5,054 nucleotides of DNA, taken from NCBI GenBank assembly GCA_021789565.1, contig JAJYJL010000763.1:1-5054 (forward strand), given 5' to 3'. The notes below the pieces were generated by a model that was not told the origin of the DNA, did no database searches, and saw only the letters and a list, made by a program, of their open reading frames with translations. This document shows, in pieces, positions 1 through 5,054 of this stretch (position 1 is its first letter; every line of letters begins with the position of its first letter). The DNA comes from Acidobacteriota bacterium (GTDB lineage: Bacteria > Acidobacteriota > Terriglobia > UBA7540). A program made the translations under genes and the position numbers.

Positions 1-1336
1 CGATCTTCCAACCGCTGCCGTTCTTTACCAAGCTCATTTGACTTCTTTGACGCCACCATTCATTTACTTCGCCTGGTAGTGGGATCCATACACCAGCGGT
101 TTTTCGCAATTCAGAAAGCCGACCAAGCAATCTTCTGTATACGCTCTGTTCGCGTTCCTTAAGGATGTAGTCAGGGTGAATAATGAAGCTCATCATGCCA
201 TGCTTCTCAAGGGCTAAAGACATCTGCTCTTCCCAAAGGTCCAGGGTGTAGTTGCGCAGGATGTGGAAAAGCGAGTAATCCTGCGTCATTGTCACCGGGA
301 TTTCGAGTATTTTGCCGATGAAATAAGGGAAGGTGGTGCAGCAGCCTCCGCGCTGCGGGTCGAGGTGAGCAACATTGGGTACGGACATGTCGTATTCAAA
401 ATCGAGCAGGTCGTACCAGTCGATATTTCGATAGAGGACTCCTGCCCGGAATCCTTTAGTGCCGAATCTTCTCCCGTACATATTGATCCGGGTCGAGCGT
501 CGTCTGAATTCCTCGTACTGGCTGAACAGATTGCCATCGTGATTCAGATCATGAACACCGACCTCAAAACCTCGTTTGCTAATGTTCCTGAGGTAGGCAT
601 CACTGACATCGTACCGACTTTCAGGAATAACCTGGAAAGAAGCTTTGACTTCGTAAGAATCATCGATGTCCATAAGCTGGTCGCAAAAATCTCTGCCAGA
701 TCCTGTCTCAACGTCATGGGTCATCAGCGCGCACGCTTGAGCCCCATTTGGCCAGAACCAGATGAAGGGCATCTCTTTTACACCGTGCGCCTTTAGGTTC
801 AGGAGCATCACCGCCTCAAGAGTAGATTCAACGCTTGTATCTACCGGCCAGCGCGGAAAAACTCTCTTGTCCCAATCGCGCAGGGAAAGTCGCTGAAGAT
901 GCTTGCGCACGGTGACCGGGGTCAGAGGCCGGATGGTGTAATAAGCCGCCCGCACAGACCTTTTGAGAAAGTTGCCGCCGCCGTGGCCGTTTCCGTTCCG
1001 GACATACTTTTCGCACCGCAGAGCTGAGACGGCCTCAGCAAGGTCAAACGGCAAATGGATGCCATCCCGGCCGCCTCGGGCGTATTCCAGAGCATCGTTC
1101 AGAACTTGCCCTGCTTCAGGCGAAGGGGTAAAGTCGGAGGCCCGTCCGTAGCAGACCGATCCCGATCCGAATTTGAAGAAGCCGGCACACCCGGACAAAT
1201 CACCCTGCACTCCAATGCGCACGAATTCCTGCGGACACCGATAGTGATCTACCATCACCTGTTCCGATGGTTCCGGGCTGCACGGATTCCTGTCCGGCGC
1301 TGAAGCCGCGACTGTTCTCTCGGCTGAAGGCTGCAT
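1..1336 (-). CDS. NodB-like polysaccharide deacetylase family protein (3' end outside window)
   Basis: The minus strand is open from a stop at 1373-1375 to the left edge, giving at least 445 codons with no frameshift. The NodB signature is visible, numbering from 1336. H207-D208-V209-E210 is the acidic metal/base motif. H262-D-L-N-H266 is the HxxxH metal site, R297 in GFRAG corresponds to motif 3, and H387 in IIHPDY corresponds to the C-terminal catalytic histidine. About 200 residues precede the NodB domain, including VRKHLQRL near 146 and PFIWFWP at 190-196; they look like a family-specific N-terminal region. By family, such enzymes remove N- or O-acetyl groups from glycans using a divalent metal. 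No signal peptide or membrane helix is evident, so a cytoplasmic substrate is possible. The start at 1336 has GAGGA five bases upstream. ATG at 1255 is a credible alternative, since residues 1-27 look disordered. It lies 129 bp after the ATP-grasp gene and is probably co-transcribed. The fold call is firm; the substrate is unknown. Confidence 0.85.
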   Translation of the reverse strand, partial: MQPSAERTVAASAPDRNPCSPEPSEQVMVDHYRCPQEFVRIGVQGDLSGCAGFFKFGSGSVCYGRASDFTPSPEAGQVLNDALEYARGGRDGIHLPFDLAEAVSALRCEKYVRNGNGHGGGNFLKRSVRAAYYTIRPLTPVTVRKHLQRLSLRDWDKRVFPRWPVDTSVESTLEAVMLLNLKAHGVKEMPFIWFWPNGAQACALMTHDVETGSGRDFCDQLMDIDDSYEVKASFQVIPESRYDVSDAYLRNISKRGFEVGVHDLNHDGNLFSQYEEFRRRSTRINMYGRRFGTKGFRAGVLYRNIDWYDLLDFEYDMSVPNVAHLDPQRGGCCTTFPYFIGKILEIPVTMTQDYSLFHILRNYTLDLWEEQMSLALEKHGMMSFIIHPDYILKEREQSVYRRLLGRLSELRKTAGVWIPLPGEVNEWWRQRSQMSLVKNGSGWKI

Positions 1337-1341
1337 CTCAT

Positions 1342-1346
1342 TCCTC
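1342..1346 (-). promoter_or_regulatory. Probable ribosome binding site of the deacetylase gene
   Basis: On the minus strand this reads GAGGA, five bases before ATG 1336, and it overlaps an alternative ATG at 1348. It supports 1336 as start. The competing ATG at 1255 has only a weak GGAA six bases upstream. Confidence 0.45.
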
Positions 1347-1441
1347 ATTGCAGGATTTACTTCCGGCGCTTCTCACATTTCATCTGTCGCTTGCTGAAAG
1401 GCCGAATGAATTCTACTCGCAAGCAGGCGGGGACACGTTTT

Positions 1442-1456
1442 CCGGCAGCGTGCCGG
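1442..1456. repeat. Small perfect hairpin between the second ATP-grasp gene and the deacetylase
   Basis: The sequence is CCGGCA-GCG-TGCCGG, a six-base-pair GC-rich stem with a three-base loop, 10 bases after the ATP-grasp stop codon. In the minus-strand direction the stem is followed by AAAA rather than a T run, so it is not a standard intrinsic terminator. It could slow 3' degradation of the upstream message or cause partial attenuation. The rest of the 1347-1465 gap holds nothing else that I can support, apart from a loose GCTTGC/GCAAGC inverted pair at 1389-1394 and 1419-1424. Confidence 0.4.
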
Positions 1457-1465
1457 GGCTTCTGC

Positions 1466-2638
1466 TCAGTAGACTCTGACCCCCTTCGACAGCCGCACAA
1501 GGCTCGGCAGCGGATCGCGCCATGAAAAGTAGGCGATTGAAGTCCGGTGCATCACGCTGGCCAGCCACTGCAACAGAGTCAACTCTCCGCGTTCTCTGAG
1601 CTCCAGGAATGCTCGAAAGTCTCTGAGCGGGTCCCATAACCGCATGCCGGTGCGGAAGTTCGTCAAAGGCGGCTGAGGGATGCCGACAATCCGGTTATAG
1701 ACAAAATTCCCCAGGTCAAATCCAGACCTTGCGAGGAGCATATTCGCGGCCGTAAATCTTGCATTGCACTCAATGAATTTCAACTTGCCATCGCGCTCGT
1801 CGTATTTGAACTCGGCGTTTGCCAGTCCCTGAAGTCCCACGTGCCGAAGCAACTTAAGCGACAGTTCGCGCACGCCCTCGACTTGGTCCGTGATGTGGTA
1901 AGAGGCAATTCCCATATTCACCGGATAGCGCCGGATAATGCGCTTCGTAAAATCAAACAAAGCGTTCCCTTCTTCGTCCAGGTAGGTGTAATAGCTGCAA
2001 AGCTTGCTGTCCGGACCGGGAATCTTTTCAAGAAGCACAGCTTCAATACCCGCGCGCTCGGTCGTACGGTATTGCTCGAGGAGTTGCTGGAAGTTATCGG
2101 CCTCAAAAAACTTGCGTTTGAACGTCCGCTGAAAAATGTGCGACAACTTCGGCTTGACGAGCATCGGGTAAACAAATTCCTCGCGAAGGCGGTGGACATC
2201 ATCTTCGCTTCGAACTTGCCAGAACTGCGGCGTCGGCACACCGACTTCTTTCGCCGCCTGATACGACCGCAGCTTATTCAGCATGATTTGCTGGGCGACC
2301 GGGTTTGACAAGTCGAGACGAAACTTCTTTGCCAGCTTCTCCCGGTTTGCGCCGATGATTTCGAGCTCCTGGTCCCCGGCCGCCAGCAGCACGCTTCCCG
2401 CCAGGTAATCGGAGTCACTGCCAGTCAGAAAATCTGGCGCCGCCTGGACGTAGGGTACATTTTCAGGCAGGCGAATCGCGCGAGCGTAGCGGCTGTATCG
2501 CGCTTCGGCCCAGCGGTCATTAAGCACGTAGACCGGGATGGACCGCGACGCCAGGCTCTCCACCACCTGGAACGCCTGGAAAAATCCCCCGAACAGAATG
2601 GCCGGAGGAAGTTTTGTGTTGCGGTTAAACGCGGACAT
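1466..2638 (-). CDS. ATP-grasp carboxylate-amine ligase-like protein (COG3919 type)
   Basis: This is a complete gene of 390 aa from ATG 2638, or 393 aa from ATG 2647. Numbering here is from 2647. The N-terminus (PPAILFGGFFQAFQVVESLA, 14-33) forms the small pre-ATP-grasp nucleotide-like fold. K124 in LNK and K165 in MLVKPK are the expected ATP-binding lysines, E207 in LLEKIPG is the adenine-side glutamate, and E279 in NAEFKYD with E293 and N295 in FIECNARF are the Mg-binding acidic residues. The active site therefore looks intact. The family (D-aspartate ligase-like and COG3919 proteins) activates a carboxylate as acyl phosphate and condenses it with an amine; the substrate cannot be read. The start favours 2638: the upstream AGGGAG lies 10 bases from that ATG but only 1 base from the ATG at 2647. 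The start overlaps the end of the preceding ATP-grasp gene by 14 nt, implying translational coupling. No signal peptide is seen, so it is cytoplasmic. Confidence 0.85.
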   Translation of the reverse strand: MSAFNRNTKLPPAILFGGFFQAFQVVESLASRSIPVYVLNDRWAEARYSRYARAIRLPENVPYVQAAPDFLTGSDSDYLAGSVLLAAGDQELEIIGANREKLAKKFRLDLSNPVAQQIMLNKLRSYQAAKEVGVPTPQFWQVRSEDDVHRLREEFVYPMLVKPKLSHIFQRTFKRKFFEADNFQQLLEQYRTTERAGIEAVLLEKIPGPDSKLCSYYTYLDEEGNALFDFTKRIIRRYPVNMGIASYHITDQVEGVRELSLKLLRHVGLQGLANAEFKYDERDGKLKFIECNARFTAANMLLARSGFDLGNFVYNRIVGIPQPPLTNFRTGMRLWDPLRDFRAFLELRERGELTLLQWLASVMHRTSIAYFSWRDPLPSLVRLSKGVRVY

Positions 2639-3722
2639 AGTCTTCATTCTCCCTGTATCGACGAGCGTGCTCCAGACAAGCCCTCAGAATCGGCACGACT
2701 ACCCGGCAGGGTCCGGTCCGATTGAAATAGTGGTTATGGTATCCGGGATTCGTATTGACCTCGATGATCTTGCCGCCTGACTCCTCAAGGCCCTGATGAA
2801 TATCAGGCGTGATAACGTCAATCCCTGCCAACCTGACGCCGACCAGATCTGCCGCCCGGCGCCCGGCGGCGACAATGCTCTCAGAGATCTCTCCGGTAAC
2901 TGATTCGTTTTCGTCTGCCATGTTGTCATTGGTAACGGTTTTAAGTGTGACTCGCTGGCCCTTAGCTGGCACAGACCGCCATGAAAGGCCCTGCCGTGCC
3001 AGGGTCCGTTTAATATCCATGTCAACCTTCAGGGTGGCCTGGGCAAGCCGGTAACCGGCATCAAGCCGCTTCTGATTCAGGTCATGGAATAATTTTGAAA
3101 TCTTTGACTTGCCATCTCCGACAACTGCGGGAAAACTGCGCCTTACGGCATCCAGAAGTTGCCCGTCGAGATACAACAGGCGAACCATCTCTCCTTCCAC
3201 GTACTCCTCGATGAGCAGCTTTGAGGAACCGTAACCGGCAGCGGCGGCAGCCGCCTTGATCAGCTGAACGCGGGTTTCTATGCCTGTTGTGACGCCACAC
3301 CCTCCGGCGGTGTCATCGGCGGGTTTCACAACACAGCTTCGGTGCCGGGCAAGAAACTCGTACGCCTTTTCCAGATGGTCCAGGGAAAACTCAGCATGGT
3401 GCGGAGTCGGCAAGCCATTCGTGTTGAGTATCGAGTGGACAAGAAGCTTGTTGAGAGCAATATCCAACGTGACAGGATCGTCCAGCGGAGTGTAGTTGTT
3501 ATACACCCTAGTGCTGGCGCCGCCGCGGCTGATTTTGAGGATTCCCTCACCCAACTCCTGGAACTCCGCCTCCAATTCGTCCGCGGCCGCGCGCCAGACA
3601 TCCTTATAGAACTTCGAGCGATAGCTTCTCGCCTGGAGCCTTTGCCTCCCTGCCCGGCCGAGTATTCGCCTCCCGCGCATAGCATAGCCCCAAACCTCCA
3701 GAAGCCGTGACTGGTACCGCAT
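2625..3722 (-). CDS. Stand-alone ATP-grasp ligase, cyanophycin-synthetase / RimK-like
   Basis: This is a complete gene of 365 aa. Numbering is from ATG 3722, which has a strong GGAGGAG eight bases upstream; the in-frame GTG at 3749 lies upstream of that site and is rejected. A basic N-terminus of about 40 residues precedes the ATP-grasp domain. NKLL at 91-94 and CVVKPADDTAGGCGV at 130-144 give the ATP-binding lysines and glycine loop. IEEYVEGEMVRLL at 171-183 is the linker and next strand, GDGKSKISKL at 202-211 is the loop characteristic of cyanophycin synthetase, and GIDVI (D302) with IIEVNTNPGYHNHY (E321, N323) supplies the metal ligands. It is far shorter than CphA, which has about 870 aa: the C-terminal Mur-ligase module is absent. 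By family it should form an amide bond via acyl phosphate. It is cytoplasmic, with no signal peptide. It lies 79 bp after the RraA-like gene and overlaps the next ATP-grasp gene. A CphA function is unlikely; the product is unknown. Confidence 0.87.
   Translation of the reverse strand: MRYQSRLLEVWGYAMRGRRILGRAGRQRLQARSYRSKFYKDVWRAAADELEAEFQELGEGILKISRGGASTRVYNNYTPLDDPVTLDIALNKLLVHSILNTNGLPTPHHAEFSLDHLEKAYEFLARHRSCVVKPADDTAGGCGVTTGIETRVQLIKAAAAAAGYGSSKLLIEEYVEGEMVRLLYLDGQLLDAVRRSFPAVVGDGKSKISKLFHDLNQKRLDAGYRLAQATLKVDMDIKRTLARQGLSWRSVPAKGQRVTLKTVTNDNMADENESVTGEISESIVAAGRRAADLVGVRLAGIDVITPDIHQGLEESGGKIIEVNTNPGYHNHYFNRTGPCRVVVPILRACLEHARRYRENEDYVRV
2649..2654 (-). promoter_or_regulatory. Ribosome binding site of the second ATP-grasp gene, inside the previous gene
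   Basis: On the minus strand this reads AGGGAG within the last codons of the CphA-like gene. It sits 10 bases before ATG 2638 and only 1 base before ATG 2647, favouring 2638. Its position inside the upstream coding region supports coupled translation of the two ligases. Confidence 0.5.
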
Positions 3723-3730
3723 CGTTAAAT

Positions 3731-3737
3731 CTCCTCC
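3731..3737 (-). promoter_or_regulatory. Ribosome binding site deciding the start of the CphA-like ATP-grasp gene
   Basis: On the minus strand this reads GGAGGAG, eight bases before ATG 3722. The longer frame from GTG 3749 would place this site inside the coding region, so ATG 3722 is preferred. Confidence 0.78.
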
Positions 3738-3801
3738 GCTTATTCTCACACTTCACCCTTTGTTCGGCAGGGCAATGGCCTGGCTTCAAAGAGCTTTACA
3801 C

Positions 3802-4554
3802 TTAGGGGACAAGAACTTCCTTTGTTTCAGCCTCGCCGGGGTAGACAAGGCACTCATGTTGCGTCAGGAGCGTATCGACCCAAGCGTTTGAAAACTCGCC
3901 CCTGCGAACCGCCGCCAGGTACGGTTCCTGGTGGGCTTTGTGAGCTTCGAGACGCCGCAGGATGGCTTCAGCCCAATCCTGGGGTACCACAACGATTCCG
4001 GAAACGTCGGCAACCACCACATCACCCGGATTGACCACCACCCCACCGCAGGCGATCGGGCAGTTGATTTCGCCGGGGCCGCGATGCAAGGGTCCGACAG
4101 GCGTCGTCCCCCGTGCGAAGACCGGAAAATCCAGGTCCTTGATTCCCGGCATGTCACGCACCAGCCCGTCAACGATGAACCCCGCGATTCCGCGGTGTTT
4201 CGCTTTCGTGCAGATGATGTCGCCCAGGACAGCATTCATCCCTCGAGTGCCATGTCCATCAACCACAACGATGTCGTTCGGCTTGGCGATGTCCAGCGCC
4301 TTGTGGACCATGAGGTTATCCCCCGGAAAGACATTAACCGTGCACGCCGGCCCGCACAGGCAACGACTCTTGTCAGTTTGACATGTGATGCTTGCATCTA
4401 AGGCATAGAGGCGGTTAAGGGTGTCGGAAATGTCGGGTACCTCGAATTCCTGAAAACGCTTCATCAACGCCGGGTCAAGCCTGGTGAAATTTTCGTGAAT
4501 ACGAAAACCGGGACCCGGATGTATTTCGGCTGATTTTGGCTTTTGCGATATCAT
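3802..4554 (-). CDS. RraA-fold protein, HMG/CHA-aldolase-like (dimethylmenaquinone methyltransferase-like family)
   Basis: This is a complete gene of 250 aa. The start ATG at 4554 is supported by GGAGG six bases upstream. The core matches the RraA / 4-hydroxy-4-methyl-2-oxoglutarate aldolase family: PDISDTLNRL at 40-49, NAVLGDIICTKAKHRGIAGF at 107-126, the catalytic GLVRD with R133 and D134, FARGTTPVGP at 147-156, and GDVVVADVSGIVVVP at 177-191. In characterised aldolases of this family the Arg-Asp pair binds substrate and the divalent metal, so enzymatic lyase or decarboxylase activity on a 2-oxo acid is plausible. E. coli RraA, the RNase E inhibitor, is about 160 aa; the extra N- and C-terminal segments here match the longer enzyme-like members. 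Names such as 'methyltransferase' for this family are historical errors. It is the first intact gene of the probable minus-strand operon, followed after 79 bp by an ATP-grasp ligase. Family call firm; substrate unknown. Confidence 0.88.
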   Translation of the reverse strand: MISQKPKSAEIHPGPGFRIHENFTRLDPALMKRFQEFEVPDISDTLNRLYALDASITCQTDKSRCLCGPACTVNVFPGDNLMVHKALDIAKPNDIVVVDGHGTRGMNAVLGDIICTKAKHRGIAGFIVDGLVRDMPGIKDLDFPVFARGTTPVGPLHRGPGEINCPIACGGVVVNPGDVVVADVSGIVVVPQDWAEAILRRLEAHKAHQEPYLAAVRRGEFSNAWVDTLLTQHECLVYPGEAETKEVLVP

Positions 4555-4576: not shown

Positions 4577-4890
4577 TTATGGATTCTCGGGCGGACATGC
4601 TTTCGCCACCGATTGGATGATCGTCCGCATGTTGGCTGGAGATCCCAACGTCATTTGATCCCATTGAAGGCTGGCAACAAGCTGTATTAGCTTGCCGACT
4701 TCGTGAGTCAAGTCTGCACGTAGATTCACAGAGTGAGCTATTTGTTCGATCTCCCGTACATCACCGGCCCGGCGCGCCGCGTGGCGAGGGTATGTGGGCA
4801 AAGTGCGCTCAACGACGGTCATCACGCCTGGGTACAATTGCCGGCAACTTTCCAAAAAGGGCTCCAACACTCCAGCCCGCTCAGCCAGCG
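4577..4890 (-). CDS. Unrecognised protein, possibly a C-terminal remnant
   Basis: I do not recognise this protein. The frame is open on the minus strand from a stop at 4973-4975 to TAA at 4577 and has ordinary-looking amino-acid and codon use from about 4890 onward. The last 70 residues look helical and amphipathic (around EIEQIAHSVNLRADLTHEVG). The upstream part, 4890-4972, is antisense to the integrase-like frame and is unlikely to be genuine coding. Possible starts are GTG 4870, giving 97 aa, ATG 4822, giving 81 aa, and TTG 4954, giving 125 aa. None has a convincing ribosome binding site. It ends 22 bp before the RraA-like start, as a preceding operon gene would. Either it is a small gene or, more likely, the 3' end of a larger gene cut near 4890. 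No signal peptide or membrane segment is seen. The start coordinate given is the estimated break, not a start codon. Confidence 0.42.
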
Positions 4891-5054
4891 ATGCAGGCCC
4901 GACCGTCGAGGATGTCGTGCGAGAGTTTCTCGCGTTCGCCGAACGCCGACGCAAGCGCCCCGAGCAGGCGCGCTACCTGCTCGAGTCGAACGTAGTGCCG
5001 GCACTCGGTCAGCGGCCGGTAAGCGAACTCAGAAAGCGCGATATCGTTGAGATG
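4890..5054 (+). CDS. Tyrosine recombinase / P4-like phage integrase, core-binding domain fragment (continues past right edge)
   Basis: The plus-strand frame reads DAGPTVEDVVREFLAFAERR, then a helix with QARYLLESNVVPALG, then QRPVSELRKRDIVEM at the window end. This is the SAM-like N-terminal core-binding domain of tyrosine recombinases: the TVEDVVREFL helix, the 'VVPALG.RPVSEL..RDIVEM' helix-turn pattern and the spacing all fit. The catalytic domain, with its Arg-His-Arg-Tyr residues, would lie outside the window. The frame is open back to a stop at 4734-4736, but upstream of about 4890 it has no ATG and no recognisable arm-binding (DUF4102-type) domain; only GTG at 4794 and 4803 could start it. 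The 5' end is therefore probably missing. By hand count this segment is about 64% GC against about 57% for the 310 bases before it. It points to a nearby or former mobile island. Confidence 0.65.

What the first reader, a model, noticed from the sequence alone, without database searches (positions are those of the whole stretch)
1..4554. Four-gene operon: RraA-like enzyme, two unlike ATP-grasp ligases and a NodB-like deacetylase
All four genes lie on one strand with gaps of 79 bp, a 14-nt overlap and 129 bp. All four keep their expected catalytic residues (the deacetylase as far as its window-truncated sequence shows). I know of no characterised pathway with this exact set. A workable hypothesis is that the deacetylase exposes an amine on a sugar or precursor and the two ligases then add carboxylates or amino acids by successive acyl-phosphate chemistry, while the RraA-like enzyme makes or removes a 2-oxo acid. 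The product could be an amide-decorated glycan or a small peptide-like metabolite.
Basis: partly seen in the sequence, partly recalled or inferred. Interest (0 to 1): 0.72.

Follow-up and report, generated by a model that had tools for sequence, protein, structure and literature searches.

The report
Acid-making and amide-ligase polysaccharide cassette
Bacteria of several phyla carry a conserved gene set that probably makes an unusual small hydroxy acid and joins it, by ATP-driven ligases, to an amine on a cell-surface sugar polymer; a related set appears to do the same with a sulfonated acid, and neither product is known.

Summary
The four genes are real, all on the minus strand, but the conserved unit differs from the one proposed. 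Its core is a 6PGDH-like dehydrogenase (DEH, DUF1932), an RraA-type aldolase and two ATP-grasp ligases (A, B); only the C-terminal third of DEH is in the window (4577 to about 4890). Eighteen fetched loci (Acidobacteria, Planctomycetota, one Actinomycetota MAG) hold this set; seven proteobacterial loci share the ligase-B clade, five with an Ldh_2 dehydrogenase instead. The window's deacetylase family lies beside the cassette in 1 of 25 fetched loci: an add-on. Polysaccharide-assembly genes lie nearby in 17 of 25. In a separate, related ligase-B clade, phosphosulfolactate synthase and phosphatase (ComA, ComB) take the place of the RraA module; the window's closest relative among the fetched loci has both versions. 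Best reading: each module makes a 3-substituted lactic-type acid, and ligase B couples it as an amide to an amine of a surface-glycan precursor, with ligase A making a second amide. Linkage and the alternative pairing are shown; substrates and product are inferred. My open-access paper searches found no description of it.

The parts
3802..4554 (-). RraA-like class II pyruvate aldolase/decarboxylase (core of the cassette)
   Evidence: PF03737 3.6e-49; residues matching Asn71, His75, Gly101, Arg123, Asp124 of the HMG/CHA aldolase 3NOJ kept; homolog in the same locus as ligase B in 24 of 25 fetched RraA-clade loci
2625..3722 (-). ATP-grasp ligase A, related to the ATP-grasp part of cyanophycin synthetase, N-acetylglutaminylglutamine synthetase and GshAB (core)
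   Evidence: Lys133, Asp302, Glu321, Asn323 invariant in 32 aligned homologs; present in 22 of 25 fetched RraA-clade loci
1466..2647 (-). ATP-grasp ligase B, carbamoyl-phosphate-synthase-like (core; defines the clade)
4577..4890 (-). C-terminal third of a 6PGDH-like dehydrogenase (DUF1932); upstream part absent from the window
   Evidence: PF09130 1e-8; 70% identical to the full-length DEH of L001 over the aligned part; 18 fetched loci carry DEH with RraA, A and B, one of them cut by its contig end
2..1348 (-). NodB/CE4-like polysaccharide deacetylase with about 190 extra N-terminal residues (accessory; runs off the window)
   Evidence: beside the cassette only in L091 among 25 fetched loci

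Best explanation
The window holds an accessory deacetylase and a nearly complete copy (its first gene is cut) of a conserved surface-glycan decoration cassette. RraA forms a carbon-carbon bond at a pyruvate enolate (aldol direction) and gives a 2-oxo acid. The dehydrogenase (DEH here, Ldh_2 in several Proteobacteria) reduces it to a 2-hydroxy acid, in effect a 3-substituted lactate. ATP-grasp B activates this acid's carboxylate as an acyl phosphate and couples it to an amine, most likely of an amino sugar in the lipid- or nucleotide-linked repeat unit. ATP-grasp A makes a second amide, for example to an amino acid at a remaining carboxylate. The deacetylase can free the amine in some lineages. 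In a separate ligase-B clade ComA and ComB supply (R)-3-sulfolactate for the same use. Shown: conserved linkage, clades of both ligases that follow the supply module, the alternative ComA-ComB pairing, polysaccharide context in most loci. Inferred: every substrate, the direction of RraA, the acceptor and the product.
For: (1) 25 fetched loci fall with the window in one ligase-B clade (26 rows, 100/100); 24 of 25 have RraA in the locus, and the 25th (L137) ends at a contig edge while its genome has that RraA on a 3.3-kb contig. (2) 23 of 23 RraA-type genomes searched have exactly one RraA at 364.8-465.9 bits, the cassette one (on that separate contig in G993); every other RraA hit there is at most 145.2 bits; 0 of 3 ComAB genomes have any at E<=1e-15. 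(3) ComA-ComB lie beside ligase B in L012, L141, L157 and L167; ComA occurs in 4 of the 26 genomes, the three ComAB ones and G043. (4) G043, which carries the window-type cassette (L091), has a separate ComA-ComB-ligase B locus (L167) whose ligase falls with the other ComAB ligases (clade of 5 rows, 100/100). (5) Ligase A splits the same way (RraA-linked clade of 23, 100/99). (6) Wzy_C, Wzz, Poly_export, flippase, Bac_transf, glycosyltransferase or exosortase genes in 17 of 25 loci. (7) Key 3NOJ residues kept; the Ldh_2 enzyme of L009 matches L-sulfolactate dehydrogenase 2X06 at 161.6 bits, though a malate/lactate dehydrogenase scores higher, 195.7.
Against: No substrate is known for any of the genes. 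The ComAB ligases are not the nearest relatives of the RraA-linked ones: ligases with neither module lie between them in the tree, and the ComAB clade includes L158, which has no ComA or ComB in the stretch fetched; the parallel could be independent recruitment. G043 appears to be a MAG, so its two contigs could come from two organisms. No polysaccharide gene was found in L001, L005, L006, L137, L139, L140; L001's neighbours were tested, the others little or not, and two are short. L139 and L163 have RraA without a DEH or Ldh_2 homolog in the stretch; L137, L138 and L163 lack ligase A. DEH has Arg where most rows have the putative catalytic Lys in L006 and L094 (the role of the Lys is recalled). 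RraA positions matching Thr145 and Lys147 of 3NOJ are Pro and His, so the reaction may differ from that of HMG/CHA aldolase. PF02679 and PF04029 membership does not prove sulfolactate synthesis. Seventeen fetched ligase-B loci have no supply module and L165 only a weak ComA 6 kb away.
Confidence: 0.45

Rival explanations
1. The ligases amidate a uronic acid of the glycan: B or A activates a sugar carboxylate and adds an amine-bearing compound derived from the RraA/DEH product, as in the glucuronamide of the Campylobacter capsule.
For: UDP-sugar dehydrogenase genes lie in L091 and L167; an ATP-grasp domain amidates glucuronic acid in C. jejuni (PMC11800379, passages); an asparagine-synthase-like amidotransferase lies near the ligases in L003 and L012.
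Against: The conserved supply modules look acid-making, not amine-making; no aminotransferase family appears in the Pfam tables of the neighbours scanned, which are far from all genes of the loci.
Confidence: 0.22
2. The cassette makes a free small peptide-like metabolite (osmolyte, metal ligand or signal), and the polysaccharide neighbours are incidental or give an export route.
For: Ligase A is related to N-acetylglutaminylglutamine synthetase and cyanophycin synthetase; L001 lies among transport and two-component genes with no glycan gene among those tested.
Against: 17 of 25 cassette loci have polysaccharide-assembly genes nearby, in Acidobacteria, Planctomycetota and Proteobacteria, and so have the ComAB loci L012, L141, L157 and L167.
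Confidence: 0.22
3. RraA and the dehydrogenase are a catabolic or salvage pair for a hydroxy acid and sit beside the ligases for another reason.
For: [quoted passage not shown]
Against: This RraA is a distinct branch found once per genome and with ligase B in 23 of 23 genomes searched; no catabolic family recurred among the neighbours scanned with Pfam, though many clusters remain unannotated.
Confidence: 0.07
4. One reading: deacetylase exposes an amine and the two ligases add amino acids or carboxylates, the four genes being the system.
For: At least nine contig lengths are shared between the lists of close ligase-A and deacetylase homologs (same contig inferred from equal lengths); some deacetylase family (the window's, PF01522, PIG-L or YdjC) lies near the cassette in 12 of 18 DEH-type loci.
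Against: The window's deacetylase family is beside the cassette in 1 of 25 fetched loci, absent near L001, and far larger than the cassette family; deacetylases are common in such loci (recalled).
Confidence: 0.04

Closest known systems
[quoted passage not shown]
   Same: A dedicated gene set makes a small 2-hydroxy acid and it is amide-linked to an amino sugar of a surface polysaccharide (PMC3441752, passages).
   Different: That paper gives tetronate biosynthesis as VC0248-VC0252; from recall these enzymes are unrelated to RraA, DEH, ComA or ATP-grasp ligases.
ATP-grasp amidoligase of the Campylobacter jejuni capsule (Cj1438 C-terminal domain)
   Same: An ATP-grasp enzyme makes an amide on a polysaccharide building unit (PMC11800379, passages).
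   Different: TupA-like ATP-grasp; activates the sugar's own carboxylate and adds serinol or ethanolamine phosphate; no aldolase module is mentioned in the passages seen.
HMG/CHA aldolase (3NOJ) of the RraA fold
   Same: Same family; Arg123, Asp124, Asn71, His75 and Gly101 equivalents kept.
   Different: Thr145 and Lys147 equivalents are Pro and His in 16 of 16; further invariant motifs HRGPGEIN and GxFSNxWVD; beside ligases, not in aromatic degradation.
ComA-ComB sulfolactate synthesis (coenzyme M pathway; also Bacillus spores, recalled)
   Same: The other ligase-B loci carry homologs of both enzymes (L012: 112 and 74 bits to solved ComA and ComB).
   Different: No Ldh_2 (ComC-type) homolog in L012, L141, L157 or L167; placed beside ATP-grasp and polysaccharide genes in bacteria.
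Cyanophycin synthetase / N-acetylglutaminylglutamine synthetase
   Same: Ligase A is homologous to their ATP-grasp part (155.8 and 126 bits).
   Different: Far below their curated cut-offs (877 or 850, and 569 bits) and matches only part of their profiles.

Membership tests
RraA/HMG-CHA class II pyruvate aldolase | RraA-like domain with the enolate-stabilising Arg and metal-binding Asp | tested here: met
   PF03737 167.3 bits; Arg133-Asp134 invariant in 16 of 16, aligned to Arg123-Asp124 of 3NOJ
RraA/HMG-CHA class II pyruvate aldolase | second metal-binding Glu199 and phosphate-site Thr145, Lys147 | tested here: inconclusive
   Glu199 lies outside the alignment; Thr145 and Lys147 match Pro155 and His157, invariant in 16 of 16
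RraA/HMG-CHA class II pyruvate aldolase | aldol or decarboxylase activity | not testable with these tools
   needs enzyme assay
ATP-grasp carboxylate-amine ligase | full ATP-grasp fold with ATP-binding Lys and Mg-binding Glu/Asn | tested here: met
   B: model pLDDT 87.8, fold match, Lys165 16/16, Glu293 15/16 (Asp in 1), Asn295 16/16; A: Lys133, Glu321, Asn323 32/32, fold not predicted. B's fold also fits PurK and biotin carboxylase, so ligase chemistry is not fixed by it
Cyanophycin synthetase | score above the curated cut-off | tested here: not met
   155.8 against 877 bits (PRK14016) and 155.5 against 850 (TIGR02068)
6PGDH/beta-hydroxyacid dehydrogenase, DUF1932 type | NAD-binding domain and DUF1932 C-terminal domain | tested here: inconclusive
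   met in L001 (PF03446, PF09130); in the window only the C-terminal domain is present
NodB/CE4 polysaccharide deacetylase | NodB fold and Asp-His-His metal site | tested here: inconclusive
Surface-polysaccharide N-acyl decoration pathway | genes in a polysaccharide locus | tested here: met
   polysaccharide-assembly genes in 17 of 25 RraA-type loci, nucleotide-sugar genes alone in L007 and L091, none found in six; not in every locus
Surface-polysaccharide N-acyl decoration pathway | hydroxy-acyl amide present in the polysaccharide | not testable with these tools
   needs chemical analysis

The most novel reading that the evidence does not exclude
A general, previously undescribed way of decorating bacterial surface glycans: one ATP-grasp amidoligase family paired with different acid-making modules, RraA working in the condensing direction plus a reductase in one version, ComA-ComB in the other. 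The second version would yield sulfolactyl-amide (sulfonated) polysaccharides in Acidobacteria and Proteobacteria, and both can coexist in one genome.
Probability: 0.32. Interest if true: 0.72.

Novelty: new variant of a known kind. Interest (0 to 1): 0.55.

Why it matters
RraA-fold proteins occur in many organisms that lack the aromatic pathways or RNase E, and their role there is called unknown (PMC5065237, passages). This cassette gives one branch of them a testable biosynthetic role, and gives ComA-ComB a possible role in polysaccharide building. It predicts unknown hydroxy-acyl, possibly sulfonated, amides on the surfaces of soil and water bacteria, including a cultured strain where it can be checked (L011, Rhodovulum robiginosum DSM 12329).

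Tried and rejected
Rfam scan of the window: nothing at gathering scores. A sigma-70 promoter or terminator splitting the operon: counts as in shuffles. Names for the extra gene between ligases A and B (CL7): no Pfam match for L094 and L093 copies, no NCBIfam match for L093 and L139 copies. The HTTM-type gene: PF05090 in L129, no Pfam match in L002 and L011, no NCBIfam match in L129. A search of the order of G043 with ligase A gave only G043 itself, 1 of 40. Of the 80 loci only the best 12 (L001-L012) were analysed; L013-L080, at 28-36% identity, were not. The Vibrio KMM 8419 paper, listed for rraA, uses rraA as a locus boundary (passages). GATOR-GC preprint: its two ATP-grasp mentions concern mycosporine clusters (passages). 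Paper searches: (phosphosulfolactate synthase + ATP-grasp: 0 papers); I saw listings only, except passages of PMC11641403, PMC5065237, PMC11800379, PMC11888242 and PMC3441752. They cover open-access papers only, and several listings were capped. Considered and dropped: deacetylase as core; RraA as an RNase E regulator (its position beside the ligases speaks against it). In the structural comparisons no single characterised ligase stood out from PurK, biotin carboxylase and L-amino acid ligase.
Full report
What is in the window. All genes of the finding are on the minus strand. Read in the direction of transcription they are a dehydrogenase remnant (about 4890-4577), RraA (4554-3802), ATP-grasp A (3722-2625), ATP-grasp B (2647-1466) and a deacetylase (1348 to beyond base 2). 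No whole genome is held for the window, and the contig of its ligase A is listed as 5054 bases long, so the window seems to be a whole metagenome contig. The homologs that carry an organism name include Acidobacteria/Terriglobia MAGs.

The conserved unit. A scan of reference genomes with the ligase-A profile (best 12 of 80 loci analysed) and sampled whole-genome searches gave the loci compared. Eighteen fetched loci carry DEH, RraA, A and B together: six in the class of the Acidobacteria genome G001, eleven in Planctomycetota and one Actinomycetota MAG in which DEH is cut by the contig end. DEH is either first or last; the order RraA-A-B is constant in these 18, with one extra gene (CL7) between A and B in four (L006, L093, L094, L095). 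Seven proteobacterial loci belong to the same ligase-B clade: L009, L011 and L140 with RraA, A, B and Ldh_2; L138 with RraA, B and Ldh_2; L137 with B and Ldh_2 at a contig edge; L139 with RraA, B and A; L163 with RraA and B. The cassette is rare: 6 of 399 genomes sampled in the class of G001 (ligase-A profile), and with the ligase-B profile 6 of 392 in the phylum of G400, 4 of 274 in the class of G406, 2 of 292 in the order of G403 and 0 of 297 in the phylum of G405 (search centres counted; with 54).

Specificity. Ligase-B scores fall into bands: 432-651 bits in the 25 RraA-clade loci; 319-489 in the four ComAB loci (L012, one of these, is itself a row of the profile); at most 284 in the other 18 fetched ligase-B loci, none of which has RraA, DEH, Ldh_2 or ComB in the stretch fetched. 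In 26 genomes, RraA of this branch is found once in each of the 23 RraA-type genomes, other RraA copies score at most 145.2 bits, and none of the three ComAB genomes has one. ComA is found in those three and in G043 only.

The alternative pairing. In L012, L141 and L157 the place of DEH and RraA is taken by homologs of phosphosulfolactate synthase and phosphosulfolactate phosphatase. L012 and the Planctomycete L003 share further neighbours, an asparagine-synthase-like gene and a GT2. G043 holds the window-type cassette with deacetylase (L091) and, on another contig, ComA, ComB and ligase B in a row (touching or overlapping if the longest reading frames are taken), inside a Bac_transf, UDP-sugar dehydrogenase and glycosyltransferase cluster (L167). 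The tree of B puts all 26 RraA-linked rows in one clade (100/100) and the four ComAB rows, with L158, which has no ComA or ComB in its stretch, in another (100/100). Ligases with neither module lie between the two, so this is not a swap between nearest relatives. Within the RraA clade the DEH rows form one group (98/91 for B; 94/95 for A), and A separates RraA-linked rows (23, 100/99) from ComAB-linked and unlinked ones. My reading is that each ligase B has adapted to the acid that its neighbours make.

Context. Wzy_C, Wzz, Poly_export, flippases, initiating sugar transferases, glycosyltransferases or an exosortase were found by Pfam, by BLAST clustering with a Pfam-tested member, or by a single-sequence profile in 17 of the 25 RraA-type loci: L002-L004, L008, L009, L011, L092-L095, L127-L131, L138, L163. 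L007 and L091 have nucleotide-sugar genes only. L001 was tested and has none; none turned up in L005, L006, L137, L139 and L140, where few neighbours were tested.

Mechanism. RraA keeps the residues that, in HMG/CHA aldolase, stabilise the pyruvate enolate and bind metal but differs at two phosphate-site positions. A class II pyruvate aldolase plus a 2-hydroxy-acid-type dehydrogenase would make a 3-substituted lactate; sulfolactate, the ComA-ComB product, is also a 3-substituted lactate. This parallel is the core of my inference and no call shows it directly. Ligase B is a complete ATP-grasp enzyme near L-amino acid ligase, PurK and biotin carboxylase in fold; ligase A resembles peptide-bond-forming enzymes by sequence. 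I therefore propose acyl-phosphate activation of the hydroxy acid by B and amide formation on an amine of a glycan precursor, and a second amide by A. Loci with B but without A (L137, L138, L163, L141, L167) suggest that B acts first or alone; the genome of L141 does have a ligase A on another contig (L010). Two kinds of dioxygenase-like genes (CL7, by my own reading of its HxD and His pattern, and TauD in L140) may tailor the product.

The deacetylase. It lies beside the cassette in L091 and the window only, among the loci fetched. At least nine contig lengths shared by the lists suggest more such cases among close relatives. Its family is large (7993 of 7998 scored candidates). It is an accessory. 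Other deacetylase families (PF01522, PIG-L, YdjC) lie near the cassette in 11 more of the 18 DEH-type loci, which fits a need for a free amine but is weak evidence.

Novelty. My searches of open-access papers (listed under Tried and rejected) found no description of this set. The kind of thing, a hydroxy-acyl amide on a surface sugar, is known in V. cholerae O1, and an ATP-grasp amide ligase on a capsule is known in C. jejuni. The enzyme set and the paired acid supply are new as far as I could find.

Noticed in passing
window 4794-5054, + strand: From about 4890 to the contig end the dehydrogenase homology stops and a plus-strand integrase-like reading frame begins (PF22022, 1.4e-4, below its cut-off), with G+C 64% against 56% beside it. 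It is either an insertion into the dehydrogenase gene or a chimeric contig end.
   Followed up: partly
L093 8145-9176, L094 10351-11550, L095 8442-9485, L006 4240-5313, L139 7416-8408: A gene of 330-399 aa, without a Pfam or NCBIfam match in the copies tested, lies between ligases A and B or beside RraA; by eye it has an HxD...H pattern like Fe(II)/2-oxoglutarate oxygenases.
   Followed up: partly
L002 8665-10164, L127 11577-13043, L129-L131, L011 6736-8319: A roughly 490-aa protein, HTTM domain in L129 (PF05090), lies just after ligase B in five Planctomycetota loci (one small ORF between in L127) and upstream of RraA in L011.
   Followed up: no
L091 6911-8098: A UbiD-type decarboxylase gene lies 96 bp upstream of the dehydrogenase in the window's closest fetched relative; that single-sequence profile hit no other locus.
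   Followed up: no
L157 6958-8343 and L134 10633-12069: B12-binding radical SAM genes lie between ComA and ComB in L157 and right after a ligase-B relative in L134.
   Followed up: no
L010, L096-L099: Relatives of ligase A at 246-301 bits occur without any of the partners in the stretches fetched; their role is unknown.
   Followed up: no
L166 2884-5192, L146 9364-11949, L164 9421-13452: Tandem pairs of ligase-B relatives.
   Followed up: no
G043 C26 (L168 8938-9780): A second ComA homolog (280 bits to PF02679) without a ComB or ligase B hit in the 19.9 kb fetched, in the genome that holds both cassette versions.
   Followed up: partly
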